Shown piece after piece: positions 3,301-37,400 of a DNA stretch of 64,000 nt (the stretch's first letter is position 1; each line of letters opens with the position of its first letter). Below the pieces are notes generated by a model. It was not told where the DNA came from and searched no databases. It saw nothing but the letters and a program-made list of their open reading frames with translations. The DNA is taken from positions 21,312,191 to 21,376,190 of the forward strand of contig NC_049986.1 of the NCBI RefSeq assembly GCF_000003815.2. Reading direction: 5' to 3'. Both the position numbers and the translations under genes were made by a program. The DNA is from Branchiostoma floridae (taxonomy: Eukaryota > Chordata > Leptocardii > Amphioxiformes > Branchiostomatidae).

Positions 3301-6300
3301 GGAACGGGGCGGGCACGGGTTGGGGCTGACACCCCTATACCGTGGCACGACACCCCTATACCGTGCCCTAGGCACAGTGGATAACATTCCACTGCCTTTA
3401 TAGCATAGCTATGGCCTTAGATGCTACATGTGACTACTTTTACTTTAACTATTAACGTTTGCCGTTTCCAGGCGGGTTTGTGTGGTACCTGACTCCCCCG
3501 CCGACTGAAGAGCTGTGGTGCCGCTGGGCAGAGGTGGGCTGCTTCAGCGGGACCATGCACGAACAAGGTAAGGACAACCATGCACAAGAACAAGGTAAGA
3601 ACAACCATGCACGAACAAGGTAAGACCACCGATCGTCGAACAAGGTTAGAACACCAGTCTTCGAACAAGGTAAGAACACCGTTCTTCGTACAAGGTAGTA
3701 ACACTGTTCGTCGAACAATGTAAGACCACCGTTCTTCGAACAAGGTAAGAACAACCATGCACGAACAAGGTTAGGACAACCATGCACGAACAAGTTAAGA
3801 ACTATAAGCACGTTCACCGTTTCAAGTACGTATGCGCAGCGACAGGAATTGTGAGTACTATGTCTTCACGCCCTTCTTGAAATCAGAGTCCATACTCGTA
3901 CTGCTTTCTGGTTACACATACTGCAAGCTCCTTGGTCAAACCGAGGAAAATATTCTACCTCGATCTTTGGTCAGACAAAGGGAAAACAATTCTTCACTCC
4001 CTCGCGGATCCCCGAGGGCCTAATGATAAATCGACTACAATTTGACTCTAGCTCTAACTCCAGTGACCAAATGACTTCATAATATTTGAGTTAGCTATAT
4101 AAAATGAGAAAGAAAGCTTTTAGTAGCTCACAGCGATATCGAGCTAACTGGATGGATTATTATTGTATTATCATATAGCCAGGCGCCGCGGACCAATCAG
4201 AAGGCCCCGTTCCACGTTGGTTATGACGCCGTAACACGTNNNNNNNNNNNNNNNNNNNNNNNNNNNNNNNNNNNNNNNNNNNNNNNNNNNNNNNNNNNNN
4301 NNNNNNNNNNNNNNNNNNNNNNNNNNNNNNNNNNNNNNNCAGGGATTATCTCACCATATACACCTCGGGCCGGGGCATTAACCCTTTATTATTAATTATC
4401 ATTCATGTCGTTGCTAAAACAGCTAGTGGAAAGGGGTTTGGAGAGAAGACCCACATCTTCGACACCCCGGAAGGCACGCGAATCTGGCGGAAGTACGCCA
4501 AGCTGCGCACCCAGCTCTTCCCGTACCTGTACAACACCGCACACGAGGCCTACCAGGTCAGGAACAGGTACAGATCTAGTACGGGGAAGAAAAATTAAAT
4601 CAAGTGAAATCAAGCACCAAGAGACCACGTCTAGCGAAATAATAGACGTAGAACACCAGAAGCTTTTCATTGATGCACTTTAAATGATAATCCGTGTATA
4701 TCATGGTTGGTAACGTCAGCGTTAGTTTCTGACGATCTATTTGCGATAATTAAGTTCTGATAGTTGTCGAATACTTTGAAAAAAAGGATAGATTTTGAGG
4801 AATTGGTGCTTAATTTCGTAAATATCGTCGATACAATCAGGCTTGTGTGGCCCAAGTTCGTGTATAGAATAAACTAACATCACCAACGTGTATGTGCTAC
4901 CTGTTATTTCCAGACGGGTCTGCCCATCATGCGGCACCACCTGCTGGACTTTCCCAACGACACTCAGGCCATCAGTCACAACTTTCAGGTGAGTCATCGT
5001 AGAGTAAAGGTTCTTCGGTCTTTTCCAAGCAGTATGACAAACGTAATATTGACATTATTAGATGGACCACCTACGTGCTCATGAAAAATGAAAGCTGTTC
5101 CAAATTTTAGTCTGATGCTACATGCATGCATCATCTGTCTCTATTCAAAGTATATCAAAAACATGCAGACAGATTGGACTCGCTGTTCTCTTACCATCTA
5201 AGTCCAGGACACCTACATTATCACGTTCTGTACGCCCTCTTTCTGTTTACATATATCATTACCAACTTTCAAACCACGAAAAAGCAATGATCTTACTGAG
5301 CTGTTCTCGGTGTGCTCTCTCCCCAGTACATGTTCGGTCCGTCGTTCCTGGTTGCCCCGGTGATAGAAGACGGCCGGAGGGGCTGGGACGTGTACCTGCC
5401 GGAGGGGGAGACATGGATAGATGTCAGCAGTCAACTCAAGGTCAGGATGTCTGTGTTTGTGTGTGTGTGTGTTTGTCTGTGTGTGTGTGTCTGTGTGTGT
5501 GTGTGGGGGGGGGGGGGGGTGCCCCCGGGAATCTGTGTTTGTGGGCGTGTCTGTTTGTGTTTCCGGGCGACATTTATAAATTTAGTTTGGATGGATTGTA
5601 ATGATATTTGATATGCATGTAGGTTTTCAGTTACACAATCATACCCTACACAATNNNNNNNNNNNNNNNNNNNNNNNNNNNNNNNNNNNNNNNNNNNNNN
5701 NNNNNNNNNNNNNNNNNNNNNNNNNNNNNNNNNNNNNNNNNNNNNNNNNNNNNNTGAAATATGCGCACTCCCCTCCGCGCTTGAGTGTGCCGACCATTTT
5801 ATTCAACTCGCCGGCGAGCCAAAGTGCGCTTAGAAACGCGTTCGGTGGTTCGCTCGAATCATTACTGAAGTTTGTTGAAAGTCCCCGCTAAGCTCCGAAG
5901 ATCTGCGACCGCAACGGTCGATTCGGAAATCTACGGTCGGCTTACTTCCGGTAGGCTACCCGGAAGTAAGTGAATTTGGTCGCGGCTTACTTTGTCAAAT
6001 TGACGTTGTTAATAAGCACTAGAAATGTGATAAAATGACGCAGATAAGTTAGAAATAAGTTGCAAATGTCAATCTGAATGGAGATTTTCAAGTTCAGAAC
6101 ATTTGAAATTTTGGCGCCATATTTCTACATTATGTCCCTTTAAATCTTTAAAAATCTCACCTGATAACGTTACTAAGTTTACCGTAGCCTTCTGATTTGC
6201 TTTGGAAAACTAATATGAAAGAGCTTATTGTTTCTATTTTTCTCAGCATGTTTTGTCGTAACATCAAATGATTTCGTTGCGTTATTGCTTCCTTATCTTT

Positions 6301-8851: not shown

Positions 8852-11800
8852 ATGGCTGCCATTGCGGACACCCGTCCCGCTGAAAACAACGTCAACACGG
8901 CCCACAAAAGCGTGGTGCTCGGTAAGTTCGAGGACCACTGCTCGGTGCTGACGGCGTGCCTGCAGGCCATGCGGCGAGAGGAGCTTCTCTGTGACGTGAT
9001 CCTAGTGGTGGAGGGGAAGACCATCCCTGCACACAGGGTCGTGCTGGCCGCCTGCAGCGACTACTTCCTTTCCGTCTTTACTTCAGAAGCGGAGGGGACT
9101 GAAGAACAGCGGCAAGACACGACGATTCACGAGGTCGCCAACGCCAACTTCGACGCCGTGCACAAGATCGTGGCCATGATGTACTCCGGCGAGCTCGCGC
9201 TCAGCCCCGAGACCATTGAAGACCTCCTCCTGGCCGCACAGATCCTCCAAGTGGCCAAGGCCACCGACTTCTGCGTGCAGTATCTCCAGACACAGGTCGA
9301 CAGAGAGACGTGTCTACAGTTTCTGAGCATCGCTGATAAATTCGAGCTCCCCGACCTGGACAGAAGGTACATACTTCAGCACGTACACGAGAACTTTTCC
9401 GAAATCTCTACGACGGAAGACTTTATCAATCTTGACAGTGAGACCGTGCAAGAGATCTTGAGCAGCGATAGGCTTGTAGTTTCGACGGAGAAGGAGGTGT
9501 TTGAGGCAGGGAGAAGATGGTTAGCGCACGATGAGGAGAGATACGAACATGCAGAAGCTGTCTTGGGACGGGTGCGTTTTTCATTCATGTCGCAAGAGGA
9601 CCTTCTGCAAGCGGTATGTGAGAATGTGCTGACAGGTGGGTCATCTTATGAACTAATTTTTTTCTGGCAATATTTGAATGGCCTTGAATCTGGATATTAA
9701 TCTTAATGCGAACCTCGGTAAAGGAAAGGCTGGACGACTATCAACACAGCTGTACAATGTCCTTGGCATGCCATACGTCAACACTGAAACGACATCGACA
9801 AGAAGTAACTAACTATGTTTAGCCATTCTTGACACCTGTCAGACGACGACGGCACCTAGTTTGTCTTTGGCGTGTATGCAGTCAAAGACACGCATCTACA
9901 ACGTGACACTGCGTGGTATTCAAATTCTATCTAGTGAACTATCATTTCAAAGTTGGAATGTTCTAAAAAGTCAAAATATTTGGAGTCCTAAAAGCAGTTT
10001 ACAATAATAGTATGATGATTTGTGACATCTTCATTTCAGTCAGGCCATTGGTAATTATCATTATTATGAGATATTTGACATAAGAAAATTTTTTGCGTTG
10101 TTGAATCGTTTAAAAGTTTTAAAACATCTCCACAGCTAACCCAGGGGTCATGGCGGTGGTGCAGGACGTGGTGGAAAGTCGTCTGCACCATGGCAACGGC
10201 GACTCCATCAGCCACCTAGCGGAGACCCCGCGAGGTGCACCCGTGAGGAAGCTCGTCATCCTGGGGGAGGGACATGAGGACATCCCGAGGGTCTATCAGA
10301 CTTGCAGGTGAGGGTTCGAATTCCGTGTTGTCTTTGTTGGTTGTTGTGTTTTCTTACCTTTATATGCACTTCTGTCTTCTAGCCGCCATGGTCACTAAAA
10401 TGACATAGCTAAAAAGTCATCATGATGGGCTTCCATACATCATCTCAAGTTAAAATTCAAGTTGGCCGCAGCCCAATGAAAGAATCAACTGATTTTGAAC
10501 AGATTCGTATTCTTGCGAATTCTGTTGAGGTTTTGCCTTTTCAGGGAAGAACTCTGACAAAATACCATTGATGATTTGGCGTCGAGTTGTTAGGCTAGCA
10601 GAAACGGGATCGAGAGGTCATGCGTTCGATTCCTGGCATTCCTGGCTAGACATACTTTCCTCAGTCAAACTAGGGGTATAAATGGGAGCCTGACTTTGGT
10701 TGGGCCGGGGTGAGATAATAGGCGAGAGATGTGCTCCGCGTCCCAATACCGTGGCCTAGACACAGTGGATAACACCTCACTGCCCCTCAGAAAGTCTATG
10801 AGACTATTTTTACCTTTATCCTACATGCTCCTTTCGATTGACCTTACATACAGTTACAATGGTCACCTGTTACCTGCAGATATTACGAGCAGAAATGGGA
10901 CGACTGGGTGGACCTGTCCTCCATGCCTCCGGGAACGGTTACCAGGCACGCCGTTGCCATGGTGAGCCACGCCCTGTACGTGCTGAGCGACCTTAAGGAC
11001 AGACACGAGCTGTACCGGTACGACCTGGGGGTCAAAGGTTGTTTTTTTTGTTGTTTTTTTTTTGTTTATTCATTTGCACAACAAGAAAGTACATAATTAT
11101 GACAAACGTTAAGAAAACACACACAACTACAGTTCGTAGCTTAGGAAGCTTTCGAGAAAGCACATTATACATAGTACGATAAACAATGGATTAAACAGGT
11201 GCAAGAGGAGGGGAAAGCGTACATATTCTAGGTTCTCCTCCTCTCCTTTATACCAAATAGAATTGATTAAAATCGATGAATAATAAAGTATAATAATACA
11301 TAAAATGTGATGACGATACGATAATGATAAGCAGATAATTAACGGTACGAATTACGATAAGAACTAAACATACATAATGTGTATGAGGCTACTACGTCAA
11401 AAAAGAGGAGGTTGTTTGCATATTTGTTTGAAGGTTGGAAGAAGCTGGCTGGGCCCGAGCACAGACGGACCGGGTACGCGCTCAGCGCCTGGCGGGAGCA
11501 CCTCTTCCTCATTGCCGGGAAGTGCCCGGTCACGACCGCGGTGGAGGAGTACGTGCCCACGGAAAACGAATGGAAATCTATCACAGGTCCATTTTAATGA
11601 GTTACCTAAAATTCTATAACCCTGTCACGAAAAGTTTTTATCTCCACGCACTGTCAGTTTGTACTTTGTTGAAGACCAAGATAGGTAAAGAGTATAGATT
11701 TATTTTAGTTCTATTTATCGATAAAGCTAGGAGAAGATAATTGTGACGTGATTTCCTTTATGCACATTGAAAGATACCCAGACCTAAAGCCTAAAAGTAG

Positions 11801-28400: not shown

Positions 28401-31400
28401 CACAACAACAACAACAACAACAACAGCAGCAGTCTCAGGGGTACGATATGTACGCTTACGACCCTCGCTACGATAACACGTACGACGACGAGCAATACGT
28501 CGAGGACGACCGGCGTAGCGTGCACAGCAACATGAGCGGCCACAGCTCCCACAGTCATCACTCCCAGGGCTGGGGAGGACAGTACGACGATAGGTAACTA
28601 CTAACCTGTGGCGTGGCGTGGATTTGGAGTGGAGTTGTCTTTCTTTGGCACCCTTTTGTTTTCTCAATTTTTGGCACTTTTGTTTGCTCAATTTCTGTTG
28701 GAGTTTCCTTTGGCACCTTTCGTTTTCTTGATTTCTGGCACTTTAGAGTTTTCTTTGGCACATTTTGTTTTCTCAATTTCTGTTGGTGGTTTCTTTAGCG
28801 CCTTTCGTGTTCTTGATTTCTGGCACTTACTCAATTTCTGGCACTTATTGACCCTTGCATTTATTTCCAGAATATGTGTTCCGTATTGACATTTTTCTGG
28901 CTTAGGTAAAAGTTTGTAGGGAAGTAGTTGTTTTTTTCATGTTGTGCAGCCTGGTTAGCCAACTGAAAAGATGACTTAACCTAACACAAGAAATGTTAGT
29001 ATGGAACTCGGTGATATAAGTGTGATATTCCCAATAGGTCATTAATCAGACCACTGAAGATTTTTTTTAAGATTTAAAAGTTTTAAAATTTTTAAGATTT
29101 TTAAGATTTAAGAAAAAAAGACTGTAAATATATAAACACATAAAATCAAAAAATTCTTATGATGATAAGTACAGCTGATTAAAATTTCTCAAACTCCTGG
29201 CATCTTGATTGCATTTATATTCAATGCCAAAAAGTTAACAAATTTAGACTTGAGACTAAATTTGAAGACACTGAAAATCAAAATCTGACAGCAGGTGAAG
29301 ACAAATCAACAACGCCAATCATTCATTCATTTCATCATTCATTCATTCATTCAACTTGCTTTGCAGACTGTTTAACATCTGAAAAGCATGCATGACAGTA
29401 AAGCAATGACGGCTGTGCATTAGAAAACCTACTTTTAGATATGAGTTAAATCTAAGCAAACTTTAAAGCTATCTCTCATGCTCCCATACAATACCATACC
29501 ATTAGGCTCACCCCAAAGTAGTGTATTTGAGTGAAAAAAAAAGAATTGGGTCCATGACTAGTCCAGTCCAGGTAGACAGCCCAGGAAGCCAAGTCTTCTC
29601 GTAAACCCTTTCTGCAAGGAGGAAGAAAGAAAAAGAACACACCAGCAAAAACAATGTTTTCTCGTTAGGAAAAACATATGACTGCATTTTGTCATGATGT
29701 ACAGTACTTAAGGGAGTTAATCTTTTGCATCCATGTCACTTTTGTCCAGGTTTGCGCGGGACTTCCACCGTGACTCCACCCAGTCGGAGACCAGTGCGTA
29801 CGGACACAACAGTTCTGCGTACGGGGACTGGTACAGGGACTCCTATCAGCAAGGTATGCTGTCTTAATACATACATGTACTTTTGTGTGTAGTAACCCAT
29901 TCCTACTGTCATTACATCACACATATTTGATTTCATTGAATACATCAGAATTCATTCATATTTGTATTGACACTTTTCATAAGCAAATAAGTGAAGTAAA
30001 TCACAAATCACTTCTTGAGATGTCGAGACAATTAGGAAGTGACAACAATAGCTGTTATATGAAAATCTGTAAGTTTTTTTCTCTTGTTCTGTCTCTCTAA
30101 GTCTAAAGCTTGGTACAACAACAGTCGTAATCTCTTCATTTTCAAAAGAAGGTTTTTCTCCTGGGCATGTAATCATATTTGTACACTTTACGAAAGGATG
30201 TTATCTATAGAGTTTCATGTATGTAAAAAACGAAGTACACTTTGTCCTAGAATGTTCACTGTACGAAGATCTGCGAAATGCATTCGCTAATGCTACACAT
30301 ATAGATAAAAAATATGCGCACCTAACGAAGGAAGATCTGTTCAAATACCTTATGTCATCATCTAACTATACTGGAAAAACTCTGTAAGCTCGTCAACGCA
30401 TGTTTCAAGTAGAGAGAAGAAGCATGTAAACTGAGCAAGAAGCAAGTATATATATATAGCTTTCCGATTACTCTCTATGTACCAAACTGACTGCAATTTA
30501 GCCCCAATGGGGTATGAATATGCAATAAGCTTCATTGTCATTGTCATCTATAGCTTGTAACTGAGAGTTTCTTTGATAGTTAAATATTTCTATATCCCCT
30601 CTCCCCCAGGAATGTCCCCTGCTGCCAGGACCACGCCCGCTAAGTTCCACATCCCCCACATGCTGGCACGGTTTGGGCCGGGAGGTCACATGATCAAGGT
30701 GCTGCCCAACAACCCTGCTGACGGCATGCCTGCTGTGGTCGAGGTGCACGGGCTGGAGGTAAGGGACAAACTACAAAATAATGGGGAGGATGGATGGAGG
30801 TGGAAGGGAAGGATTTATTTATTTATTTGTCATTTTTACCCAGGGTTACCTTCTCAGTGATGCAGTGGAGCCCTGTGTTACACAAATAAATCAATTACTG
30901 TATATACGGTGACAATACAAACAGAAAATTAACGTACAATAAATGATGTGATTATGATTCGAGGGAGAGAGTTAAATATGATCCTGAAAAGTCAACAAGA
31001 AAAATGCAGGATGACAGAAAATTGGACAGTACTGTTGATCTAAAAGAATAGCTGCAGAACATTCTTCCTGTCAGTATCCCACCATACTATTGAATAAGAC
31101 AGCACTGGAAATCTGATGTACGATGAATTAAGTTTGATCTTTTCTTCCAGTCAGTTATTTACATGTATGGGCCTTGAGCCTTTTTTACTGTCCCATTTAT
31201 CATCTGTTGGTCTCCATATCGCAAGAGTTATATGCCTGATTTTAACAATTCAGAAATGAATAAAAAGAAAGCAGAGACAGTTAACCCTTTAACAAAATTT
31301 GTGTTGTTTATCCACAGACTCTTCTTGTGAACAACAATGAAGTGGAGGAACTCAGAAGTTTCCATGGACCGCTCATCAAGTATGTCAAGCAGCATGTGGT

Positions 31401-34400
31401 TTTCATAGCAATGTTGTATACATTTGCCCTCTAGCACAAGTGTGCCCAAATACAGCTTAGTAAAATATTTGACAAGTTTCCCTTTCATTAAACTTACCAC
31501 AAAATACAAGGCTGGTAAGCTACTCAGATGCTCTGTGTTATGCTATGCTGCTGTGTGAAACTGACAGATGTCTGTTTACCTTTGACTTAAAAAGTGTAAG
31601 GTTATTCTTGTCAGGGAAGAATTAATGATATCAAAACAGTTAAAAAGCAGGTGCTGAATTCTTAATCTTGCCGTATGCTTTCTGTATTTTTTTGCTTTGA
31701 ACAGTTTTTTTTTAATGCATTGTCTGTTCCAGGGGTGTGACCCACAAGAGCGATGTGATCCGGTTCTGCCAGGACAAGGCTGCGGCCTGTCTGGCCAGCA
31801 CAGACCTGAGGGACAAGGAGTCAGCCGCGCTGCTGTGGCAGCTTCTGGAGCTCCTCTGTAGGCAGAACGGGGTAGGTTTGTAAAGGTTTCTGTGGTGCTG
31901 TGCAACTTATCAATCAATTTTCAGCTGCTTTTTCTTGCTTTCATCAAGGTATAATGAACTTCTTGCTATATTATGGTGTCTCACTGTGATTGTGCTTATA
32001 CTTATAGACTTGTAAATGACTTAGCAATATGATGAATATGATTTGGGTGCCCCACAGGAAAAAAGGAGAGGGGGGAACAGCCATAACTTGGAAAGGAACA
32101 GTTGAGCAGGACCTTGTTGAGATAGACTGCAGTTGGGAAGGAGCTCAGTAGACAGCGTCAGACAAAGAATGGTTGAAGTTATTGATGGCCCACTTCCGTC
32201 CGATGATAATGATCATACATTGTTCTTAAATCAAAAATGTTTTTCTTTCCTCCAGACGATTGTGGGTACAGACATTGCAGAGCTGCTTCTCCAGGGCCAC
32301 CCGTCCATGGCTTATCCCCAGCGTACGGAAGCAGAGGGGGAGGACCGGGGGAGCCAGGGGGACCTGTCCCAGGCCTCCACCGCTAGCGAAGGCACCGTGG
32401 GGGGGACTGAGGCTGCGGACATCGAGAGGCTGACGCAGAAGTTCCGGGAACTGCTGCTGTTTGGGAGGAAAAAGGTAGGAAGAACTTGTTTTTGCTTACA
32501 AACAACAATGTATTAATTGGTGTACTGTGTTGGTACCTTTAAGGTGTAAAATAGAATCCATAGGGTTAATACTTATTATTTAGACTGGCAGAATCTTGCG
32601 GATATACCCAGTAACCAATACAGATACATTGTGTTTGTGGGTACTATAATGTTGCTGGATAGTGCTCAGGTGGTATTTCTGATTTGATTAAGTGTCATAA
32701 AATGCAAAGATGTTGTTCCTTTGGTTTTGGCAAGTGGATTTGAAGTTAAAAGAAAACTGTTGCCCCTGCTAAAAGGAAATAATCGGTACCAAGAATACTG
32801 GTCCTTCGTGTACTGTACTGTAATGTCCTATAATGTAAAGATTTTAATGTTTTGTTATTTCTTCCCCCAGGATGCGCTAGAGTGGGCCATGAAGGGGGGT
32901 CTGTGGGGCCATGCCCTGCTGCTGGCCAGCAAGATGGACTCCAGAGCTCACGCTAACGTCATGACAAGGTTGGTGATGTTTGTTGTTTGTAATGTTGCAA
33001 CTTAGATCATAAAAGAGGTCAGCTTGAGAAGGTTTCAAGAGGCATCCGTCATTTAACTCTGAACGTCACGTGACCTGGGAAAAGTATTGTGGAATAGAAA
33101 CCTTGATCACAGTGTAAGGATGGGGAACAGGACCTGATGTATATGGCCTCTTTGACCCCATGTGCACGCTCAAACCATCTGCTCTCCATGTCAAGGACAG
33201 ATACTTGATATCATCTCCTATGAGGAGGTTATCTTTTTATTATTTGTTGCCTTGCTAGGCAGATAAATCAAAAAGGTTTCAGTTGACCTGTATGTTTGTT
33301 AGTTTTCTGTTCTGACATAATGAGTACCGTAGAGCTGAAAAAAAGCAAGCAATGCGTTTGTTGTCTTGTCTAGGTTTGCGAACAGCCTGCCGATGAACGA
33401 CCCTCTACAGACCCTGTACCAGCTCATGTCCCATCGCCAACCTGCTGCCGTCACCGTGAGTCTTTACTTGTTCTTTTCTCTTAATAGTTGAGCCATGTGC
33501 TAAGTTTTAATGGCAGTTCCACTTCTAAATCCCATGGTTCGATTCCAAGGTGTCCTGGACTTAGACTTGCTGTTGTTTTTGGTCACTGCTGCAAACTTGA
33601 GATATTTAGATAGAAACTTCTTTCAGCTATCCCAAACTTTTTTCAGCTAACCCAAACTAACAGAAAAGCAACTTGAGATTTTATATCTTTATCAGACACT
33701 GCCTTCAGGCAAGAATGTGGCAAAATCACTGGAAATCATTAATGATGGTCCTGTCTAAACTCACCCAGTTGCCACCTGTTATCACTGCTCACTAACTCCC
33801 CCTTGTGATTTTGTTGTGAACTGCAGAGCTGTGCAGATGAGAGGTGGGGCGACTGGAGACCACACCTAGCGATGGTTCTGTCGAACCACACCCAGCGACC
33901 AGAGGTAGACAGGAAGAGCATCATCACCCTCGGAGATACACTAGGTACGCCAGATTGTGTCAGTTAGTCAGGCTTGCCTGAGCTTGATGTTTCTGACTTT
34001 GTGGAGAAGACATACTGCTTCAGTGAGAGTTAGTGCAGTACTCGGAAGTGGTCCATTTGGCCATCCTTGCTGACTAAGCAAACTCATTTGACAAAATAAA
34101 AAGTATTGGAATTCTACTCAAATTTTTTAACTAGAAAACTGCCAACCAGCTTTCATCAAATGTTCAAAGAACTGGAAAAAAGTGGCCACTGCCTGAAAGT
34201 GGCATTTTAACCAAGGAAGAGGTTGCCTTGGTTTGTACTTGAATGGAGAAAACTGCTGACTTCAAACTTTGGTTGCTGGTTGAGTTAGTTTGTTCAAAAG
34301 CTGTTAGGTACTTGTGATAATATTCAGCCCTTGGTGGCTAAGAAATGGACAGTATAAGACTAGACAATACAAAATATAATCCTGGGTATGGCAGAAGAAG

Positions 34401-37400
34401 TAAGACACCAGTCTAAATCTTTTCTTGATCCATCCTCAGGTTCCCGAGGCCTTCTCCATGCCGCCCACTTCTGTTACCTGATGGCCCAGGCCAACTTTGG
34501 GCACTACAGCAAGAAGGCCAGCAAGATGGTGCTACTGGGGTCAAGTCACAGGTAACATGGGCTGCCAAGTTTTACCTTTGAGGGTTACATTCATTTGGAA
34601 CATTGATGAAATACTTGATGGAGAGATGGTAGAAAAATTTGTATGTCGAGGAAGGATAACAAGGTAACAGCCTGAGTGATAGTGTGCTATCTATATATAT
34701 ATGGTGATGTTGGGCCATTCTGTTTAAATCACACCTGTTAGAAGACTTCCTATCATAAAATGTATCTCTTGATGATTGTTCTGTTGGCATGAGGGCTTGA
34801 CAAATGTATTATGTAATTAATTTCTGTGTCTTTGCCCTCTGTAGCCTCCCCTTCATGGAGTTTGCGAGTAACGAGGCCATCCAGATGACAGAAGTGTACG
34901 AGTACGCCATGACTCTGGGCAACGCTGCACACTACATCCTACCCAGCTTCCAGGTAGGCTGGAAAGACATCATGCAATTGTTTCTCTTTGGTGCAGGGCT
35001 CTAGCCAGCTCGAAATTTTTCCGTCAGCCAATTCCCTTTGTCGCGAAAACACTATTCCAGGAGTTAGAGGGACTGAACTGATACCTTGAAAAACCGGTTT
35101 TTAAAGAGATTATTCTATGCGAAAGGGCGCCGACACACATTGTCAACAATCATAACAATAGCAAAACAAACAGTGTGTGGCTTTTACGGCCATGGCCAGC
35201 GTCCCCAAGCTGCCTGTAGAATTTTTGTCCGTCAAGGTTGACCCATTGCTTTTAAAAATTTTCCTTCACACGCAGCAAACTTCCGTCAATTGACGGAAAA
35301 ACAGACGCTGGCTAGAGCCCTGCTTTGGTGGAAGAATCTTTATTGTCTTCAGTCTGTCATTGTAATCTTTGTTTCAATAAGGGTTTCAATGTTCTCTTAT
35401 TGTGTTATTCCAGGAGTACAAGTTTCTGTATGCAACAAGGCTAGCAGAGTGTGGCATGACGGCACAGGTATGTAAACTTCTATCTGACAATGTAGGCTTC
35501 TCCCTTTGAGAACTTTATGATGAGACAGTGTAATTTAACTACATCAATCATTGTTTCTATACGGAAAGCCTTACGTCCTTGCTAGCATTTTCAAGTATAT
35601 ACAGGTGAAAGTTACGTTTGGAAAGTAATACTGTTGGCATCATATACAGGCCCTGATGTACTGTGAGTGTATAGTCTCAGCCGTGGAGAAAGCGCCCACA
35701 TCCTTCAGTAGCACACTGATCCCTCACCACACTTCCTACATACACACATGTACATAACCTTCCCTTACTGCCCCCCTCCCCAGGCCCTGACGTACTGTGA
35801 GTGTATAGTCTCAGCCGTGGAGAAAGCGCCCACATCCTTCAGTAGCACACTGATCTCTCACCACACTTCCTACATACACACATGTACATAACCTTCCCTT
35901 ACCGCCCCCCTCCCCAGGCCCTGACGTACTGTGAGTGTATAGTCTCAGCCGTGGAGAGAGCGCCCACATCCTTCAGTAGCACACTGATCCCTCACCACAC
36001 TTCCTACATACACACATGTACATAACCTTCCCTTACCGCCCCCCTCCCCAGGCCCTGACGTACTGTGAGTGTATAGTCTCAGCCGTGGAGAAAGCGCCCA
36101 CATCCTTCAGTAGCACACTGATCTCTCACCACACTTCCTACATACATAACCTCCCCTTACCGCCCCCCTCCCCAGGCCCTGACGTACTGTGAGTGTATAG
36201 TCTCAGCCGTGGAGAGAGCGCCCACATCCTTCAGTAGCACACTGATCTCTCACCACAGTTCCTACACACATGTACATAACCTTCCCTTACTGCCCCCCTC
36301 CCCAGGCCCTGACGTACTGTGAGTGTATAGTCTCAGCCGTGGAGAAAGCGCCCACATCCTTCAGTAGCACACTGATCTCTCACCACAGTTACACAGATGT
36401 ACATAACCTTCCCTTACCGCCCCCCTCCCCAGGCCTTGACGTACTGTGAGTGTATAGTCTCATCTGTGGAGAGAGCGCCCACATCCTTCAGTAGCACACT
36501 GATCTCTCACCACACTTCCTACACACACACACGTACATAACCTTCCCTTACCGCCCCCCTCCCCAGGCCCTGATGTACTGTGAGTGTATAGTCTCAGCGG
36601 TGGAGAGAGCGCCCACATCCTTCAGTAGCACCCTGATCTCCCAGCTACACCAGCTGTCGGAGCGACTGTTCTGGCACGACCCACAGTTCTCCAGCCTCAG
36701 CACAGAGGAGGACCAGGACTACGACTGGATCAACAGCATCAGATACATGAACCAGCAGGTCCAGGTAGGACTATACAGTAGCACCCACAACAGATTACTG
36801 CACACTTCTGTTAATTGCACAAAGTCCCCAAATCCCAAATCGGTGCTGTTCAGCTGGATAATTTCGTATTGTTGCATCACCCGGATAATTGCACGAAATA
36901 ATCTGGCAAATTATGTGTGCAGTTAAATGGCTTCTAATGTACTAGTTTTGTGCTTGTGGCCACAGAAGCTAACAAAGAGTAATATGAGAGAAACAAAAGT
37001 TCGGCACAATCTTTTGTTACCAAAATGCTAGCTAGTAACTGTGCTATGTTTTGTTTCTCTCAGCCCTTGGGAAAAGAATTGACAATAAACTTTTAATGAA
37101 CATATCTTATGACTGAACCCTGTTGGCAAATCTGAACTCAAGTGGCACACTTTAGCAGCTTTAAAAGAGAAACTGGTGGGAGGCGAGAAATGACAATAAG
37201 CAAATGACTAAAAGAGATGTGTACTGTATTTAAGATTTCAGCTTCCTACAACGAGGAAAAGTGGATCATTCAGAATATTTTTGAGTATGAATTATAAGAT
37301 TGCCTTTGTACAGTTACCGTATATTTTGTCGTCTTGACCTTTTTGTCGTCTTTTGTCCTGACCTCACCTGTCCTATCCTGTCCTGTCCTGAATGAGCGTC

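What the first reader, a model, noticed from the sequence alone, without database searches (positions are those of the whole stretch)
35650..36764. SEC16 exon start and its 3' splice site amplified into an eight-member tandem array
Seven truncated copies, each with a polypyrimidine tract and AG acceptor plus ~80 coding bases, precede the one complete exon (36567-36764). All acceptors are in the same phase relative to the upstream exon (35414-35467). Copy 1 meets an in-frame TAA after 36 codons, so use of an early acceptor without a downstream donor would end SEC16 inside its central domain. Each copy also has a donor-like ACTGTGAGT 10 bases in, so 13-base micro-exons are conceivable. The locus could be a decoy-acceptor switch that sets SEC16 dose, or a neutral minisatellite the spliceosome reads through. 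Copies 2-7 are so alike that the array must be young or homogenised.
Basis: partly seen in the sequence, partly recalled or inferred. Interest (0 to 1): 0.85.

Follow-up and report, generated by a model that had tools for sequence, protein, structure and literature searches.

The report
Amphioxus SEC16 splice-site minisatellite ("mirage")
In an amphioxus (lancelet) gene, the start of one exon and its splice signal have been copied into a small tandem array; this is a real but already named oddity of amphioxus genes, and the extra copies are most likely spliced out as harmless intron.

Summary
The array is real: eight exon-heads at 35650-36567, 124-134 bp apart, the last opening the intact 198-nt SEC16 exon. 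Two details are wrong: copy 1 lacks the polypyrimidine tract (10/20 pyrimidines against 18/20 in the other seven), and its TAA follows 35 codons, not 36. The design is that of amphioxus "mirages", minisatellites spanning intron-exon boundaries, published for Adh3, troponin C, globins and PGBD5 (PMC3087553, PMC3902484). The same assembly holds related arrays in a globin gene, an ABCC gene and, on the donor side, a GH31 gene in this window. Seven of seven decoys read into a stop, no unit length is a multiple of three, and variants private to the working exon are synonymous while four sites among the decoys change amino acids. Best reading: a young, drifting minisatellite that splicing passes over in favour of the last acceptor, the only one with the whole exon and donor behind it. 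Adh3 and globin mirages are reported to splice normally. A decoy switch has no positive support but no RNA was available. New member of a known kind.

The parts
35414..35467 (+). upstream SEC16 exon ([18 protein letters not shown]), donor CAG|GTATGT
   Evidence: sequence and frame; donor score 9.99 on a generic matrix
35468..36566 (+). SEC16 intron that holds the array, if only the last acceptor is used
   Evidence: use of the last acceptor is inferred
35650..35783 (+). unit 1: decoy exon-head after a weak, unrelated acceptor (catatacag)
35784..35917 (+). unit 2: decoy exon-head after polypyrimidine acceptor
35918..36051 (+). unit 3: decoy
36052..36175 (+). unit 4: decoy, 10 bp shorter in the intronic part
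36176..36305 (+). unit 5: decoy
36306..36432 (+). unit 6: decoy
36433..36566 (+). unit 7: decoy next to the real exon, with the most diverged exon-head of the seven
36567..36764 (+). intact SEC16 exon, 66 codons, phase 0; its frame matches TPR_Sec16 (PF12931) profile positions 226-265
36765..36770 (+). donor of the intact exon, CAG|GTAGGA
3552..3802 (+). second boundary array in the window: ten copies, about 25 bp, of exon end plus donor (ACCATGCACGAACAAG|GTAAG) of a GH31 gene

Best explanation
It is a 'mirage': an amphioxus minisatellite whose unit spans a 3' splice site (about 50 nt of intron end plus about 80 nt of exon start of SEC16). A short tandem duplication of the junction was amplified and partly homogenised, by slippage or unequal exchange. 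The intact exon stayed at the downstream edge, so the truncated copies fell into the intron. Splicing most likely uses acceptor 36567: it is locally almost identical to decoys 2-7, but it alone is followed by the whole exon and a good donor 198 nt on (exon definition). Decoy use with read-through would give a stop after 35-48 codons and so a message open to decay. Shown: layout, frames, stops, variation, likeness in design to other mirages. Inferred: origin steps, acceptor choice, neutrality.
For: Layout and statistics. SEC16: 4 of 6 frames scanned from 30561-36923 match TPR_Sec16 in collinear order. The published globin BflGb6 mirage has the same design (3' end of intron plus 5' part of exon, 150-160 bp units, 6 and 3 units in two haplotypes), and RT-PCR suggested regular splicing (section read). 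An array of that design is in this assembly: L030 954-1601, 158 bp, acceptors opening at 1036, 1190, 1348, 1506, the last with the intact globin exon. Another, in an ABCC gene, came out of 20 stretches of 10 kb taken by position: L019 3693-3952, 135-bp unit, one decoy plus the intact exon. A donor-side one lies in the same window. Variation: 8 variable sites in the first 75 exon bases; the 3 variants private to copy 8 (sites 33, 66, 75) are synonymous; of the 5 other sites 4 change an amino acid. Decoys 1-7 meet a stop after 35, 35, 35, 46, 48, 47 and 35 codons; unit lengths are 134, 134, 134, 124, 130, 127, 134, none a multiple of 3.
Against: No transcript was seen, so acceptor use is untested. 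Local signals of decoys 2-7 are as good as the real ones, so some leakage would be expected from sequence alone; the globin paper itself notes that such sites could act as cryptic splice sites. For PGBD5 the repeat-bearing part of the transcript was not verified and one gene model places an exon inside the repeats. Copy 1 does not begin with the unit's intronic part, unlike the globin and ABCC arrays, so a simple duplication of [intron end + exon start] does not explain the left edge without a further step. The variation counts are small (8 sites).
Confidence: 0.85

Rival explanations
1. Decoy-acceptor or poison-exon switch: acceptors 1-7 (read through to donor 36765, or paired with ACT|GTGAGT in the next copy as exons of 137-147 nt) are used at a regulated rate, end SEC16 early and lower its dose.
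For: Six decoys share the real site's branch-like TAAC, pyrimidine tract and CAG; 7 of 7 read-throughs hit a stop; a donor-like site with GTGAGT lies in each copy.
Against: ACT|GTGAGT scores 6.3 against 8.8 for the true donor on a recalled generic matrix; Adh3, troponin C and globin mirages are reported not to disturb splicing; units vary in length and sequence; the Sec16 splice control described in human T cells is elsewhere in the gene.
Confidence: 0.06
2. Assembly artefact: one or few copies in the animal, inflated in the assembly.
Confidence: 0.05
3. A variant of the mirage reading, compatible with it: the array supplied the working splice site. The old acceptor was catatacag before copy 1, the strong pyrimidine acceptor came in with the array, and the intron end moved 917 nt downstream.
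For: Likeness of copy 1 to the others starts at the CAG of the splice junction itself, and its upstream sequence is unrelated (20-22 of 34 bases differ).
Against: In the globin and ABCC arrays the intronic part precedes the first copy too, so a later deletion before copy 1 would be enough.
Confidence: 0.12

Closest known systems
Amphioxus mirage of globin BflGb6 (PMC3087553; abstract passage and section 16 read)
   Same: Tandem units of 3' intron end plus 5' exon part before the intact exon, similar unit length (150-160 bp), several copies, splice signals in many copies, edge copies left out of homogenisation
   Different: Other gene; 124-134 bp; eight heads; copy 1 lacks the intronic part of the unit
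Adh3 mirage (Canestro et al. 2002; paper not held, known here only through PMC3087553 and PMC3902484)
   Same: Minisatellite across an exon-intron boundary of an amphioxus gene
   Different: Units 10-72 bp as cited; somatic instability reported there, not tested here
PGBD5 and troponin C splice-site repeats in lancelet (PMC3902484; passages and section 17 read)
   Same: PGBD5: 60- and 108-bp tandem repeats coinciding with or overlapping splice sites; copy number differs between two versions of the genome sequence
   Different: PGBD5 copies are described as imperfect; other genes
Intron gain by tandem genomic duplication (review PMC3443670; passages read)
   Same: Tandem duplication that repeats splice signals
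   Different: No new intron is seen here: the array sits at the end of an existing intron

Membership tests
Amphioxus mirage | tandem repeat whose unit spans an exon-intron boundary | tested here: met
Amphioxus mirage | lies in an amphioxus protein-coding gene, one intact exon copy at the array edge | tested here: met
SEC16 by Pfam; 36567-36764 intact.
Amphioxus mirage | copy-number polymorphism between haplotypes or tissues | not testable with these tools
   one place in one assembly
Amphioxus mirage | does not disturb regular splicing | not testable with these tools
   no RNA data; reported for other mirages
Regulated poison exon / decoy acceptor | decoy use gives premature stop | tested here: met
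   7 of 7 read-throughs
Regulated poison exon / decoy acceptor | sequence kept by selection across species | not testable with these tools
   no second Branchiostoma genome at hand; within the array decoys vary
Regulated poison exon / decoy acceptor | regulated use in RNA | not testable with these tools
   no RNA data

The most novel reading that the evidence does not exclude
The array is a length-variable poison-acceptor bank: each added copy raises the share of SEC16 transcripts that end early, so copy number between animals tunes ER-export capacity.
Probability: 0.05. Interest if true: 0.75.

Novelty: new member of a known kind. Interest (0 to 1): 0.3.

Why it matters
It adds a clean, eight-head example in a trafficking gene to a short published list, and two more arrays of this sort turned up in 264 kb (one of them in this selected window), which hints that they may be common in this genome. 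Because decoys 2-7 and the real site differ by only 0-2 of the last 34 intron bases and 4-6 of the first 75 exon bases, the locus is a natural test of how the spliceosome picks one acceptor among near-equals.

Tried and rejected
RNA families: no Rfam match at gathering score in 35300-37000. Origin of the 51-nt intronic filler: BLAST against the window found the array and otherwise only matches of 10-17 bases; the genome-wide search for it did not complete, nor one for the GH31 array. Second SEC16 locus as outgroup: the PF12931 search of the genome did not complete. PDB sequence search with three joined SEC16 exons gave 4 matches, E 0.3 or worse, none a Sec16. The ABCC exon alone gave no Pfam or PDB match; joined with a piece of its next exon it matched PF00664 and, best of 47, ABCC9 chains. 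A census of boundary arrays was begun, not finished: of 21 arrays of period 24 or more in the 20 sampled stretches I read the sequence around four (one in L019, a mirage; one in L020, a coding repeat; two in L009, not assigned); the other 17 were not judged. Of the 9 globin loci only L030 has a long array; short ones (20-25 bp, about 2 copies) in L026, L027 and L028 were not checked for boundaries, and no BflGb9-like duplicate was looked for beyond the repeat finder. Whether arrays favour splice sites or hit them by chance stays open.

Papers: the search for amphioxus + Sec16 + splice found 0 papers; searches on amphioxus minisatellites, mirages and intron gain brought the globin and PGBD5 papers (also 24, 25, the latter listing 15 of 2,666). 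That a SEC16 mirage is not in print rests on these searches of an open-licence library only. Canestro 2002 is not held.

Full report
What is there. The tandem array exists as described: eight heads of one exon at 35650-36567, 124-134 bp apart. It is far outside chance: score 1694 against at most 56 in 20 shuffles. The gene is SEC16: of six frames scanned between 30561 and 36923, four hit Pfam TPR_Sec16 (PF12931) in collinear order, profile 11-46, 129-168, 176-208, 226-265 (E from 2.8e-5 to 0.021; only the first passes the curated cut-off alone); the first two frames had no Sec16 match. The array was found at one place in the 513-Mb assembly.

Anatomy. Each unit holds about 80 nt of exon start, then about 50 nt ending, in most copies, in TACATAACCTTCCCTTACCGCCCCCCTCCCCAG: a branch-like TAAC, a pyrimidine tract and CAG (the branch motif is a recalled consensus). 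Copies 2-8 differ there from each other at 0-3 of 34 bases. Copy 1 is different: its acceptor is ...GGCATCATATACAG with 10 of 20 pyrimidines, and likeness to the other copies starts at the CAG of the junction.

What a decoy would do. Reading on from acceptors 1-7 gives 35, 35, 35, 46, 48, 47 and 35 codons before a stop. Joined to the donor-like ACT|GTGAGT of the next copy they would form exons of 147, 147, 147, 137, 143, 140 and 147 nt (arithmetic); those from copies 1-3 and 7 hold the stop at codon 36, and those from 4-6 shift the frame. So the sequence does allow poison exons. A further donor-like CAG|GTGAAA (7.0) lies in the intron at 35605, before copy 1.

Which copy works. Among the first 75 exon bases 8 sites vary. 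Three variants are private to copy 8 and all three are synonymous third-position changes (sites 33, 66, 75; site 33 also has a third base in copy 7). Of the other five sites, four change the amino acid (8 M/T, 31 A/S, 41 K/R, 73 S/P) and one does not (4). This is what one expects of one constrained exon and seven free copies, though numbers are small. Copies 1 and 8 share ATG at codon 3 where 2-7 have ACG, as if the inner copies were amplified from one derived unit. The K/R difference alternates over copies 2-7, which hints at growth in two-unit steps (inference).

What it is. Amphioxus genes are known to hold such arrays, named mirages: Adh3, troponin C, globins BflGb6 and BflGb9, PGBD5 (PMC3087553, section 16 read; PMC3902484, passages and section 17). 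BflGb6 has the same layout, unit size class and edge-against-inner pattern, differs in copy number between haplotypes, and by RT-PCR seems to splice regularly; its authors add that the copied sites could serve as cryptic ones. For PGBD5 the splicing of the repeat part was not verified. As a control I looked for globins in this assembly: of 9 loci, one (L030) carries a 158-bp array with four acceptors, the last opening the intact globin exon. I take it for BflGb6 from its layout; no comparison with the published letters was made.

More of them. In 200 kb sampled by position (about 15 kb of it N) one further case came up: L019, minus strand, a 135-bp unit with one decoy (first exon base 3893) before the intact exon 3603-3758 of an ABCC gene, best matched by SUR2 and SUR1 chains. 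In the window itself, 3552-3802 is a donor-side array: ten copies of an about 25-bp unit of exon end plus GTAAG in a GH31 gene (Pfam PF01055, E 0.0075, below the curated cut-off); 9 of 10 keep GT at the junction. The window was chosen for its finding, so it does not give a rate; the sample, with 17 of 21 arrays not judged, gives only 'at least one'.

How it most likely works. The array is intron. Because decoys 2-7 match the real site at 32-34 of the last 34 intron bases and 69-71 of the first 75 exon bases, the choice of 36567 must rest on something outside that stretch. The plainest is what follows: the rest of the exon, about 120 bases, and a good donor (8.8 against 6.3 for the donor-like site, on a generic matrix recalled from memory), that is, exon definition. 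This is inferred; no RNA was available.

Weighing. The dose-switch reading is allowed by the sequence but has no positive support, and related arrays argue against it. Human Sec16 does have regulated splicing that affects COPII transport, at exons 29 and 30 of the C-terminal region (PMC4980449, passages), not in this domain. The one feature I cannot place is the left edge at the exact splice junction. It may be a later deletion, or a sign that the strong acceptor was brought in by the array.

Verdict. Observation good, with two corrections; a new member of a known kind; interest modest.

Noticed in passing
window 3552-3802: Donor-side boundary array: ten copies of about 25 bp, ACCATGCACGAACAAG|GTAAG, at the end of a GH31 exon (about 3472-3567)
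   Followed up: partly
L019 3693-3952 (minus strand): Acceptor-side mirage with one decoy in an ABCC (SUR-like) gene, 135-bp unit
   Followed up: yes
L030 954-1601: Globin mirage, four acceptors, 158-bp unit, probably BflGb6
   Followed up: yes
window 36794-36911 and 17783-17666: 118-bp dispersed repeat in opposite orientation, 84% alike, one copy in the intron after the array
   Followed up: no
window 8852-9697: Open frame of a BTB-BACK protein
   Followed up: partly
L020 7406-7702: 81-bp (27-residue) tandem repeat, 3.7 copies, inside an open frame
   Followed up: no
window 35647-35652: Likeness of copy 1 to the other units begins at the splice junction itself; cause unknown
   Followed up: partly
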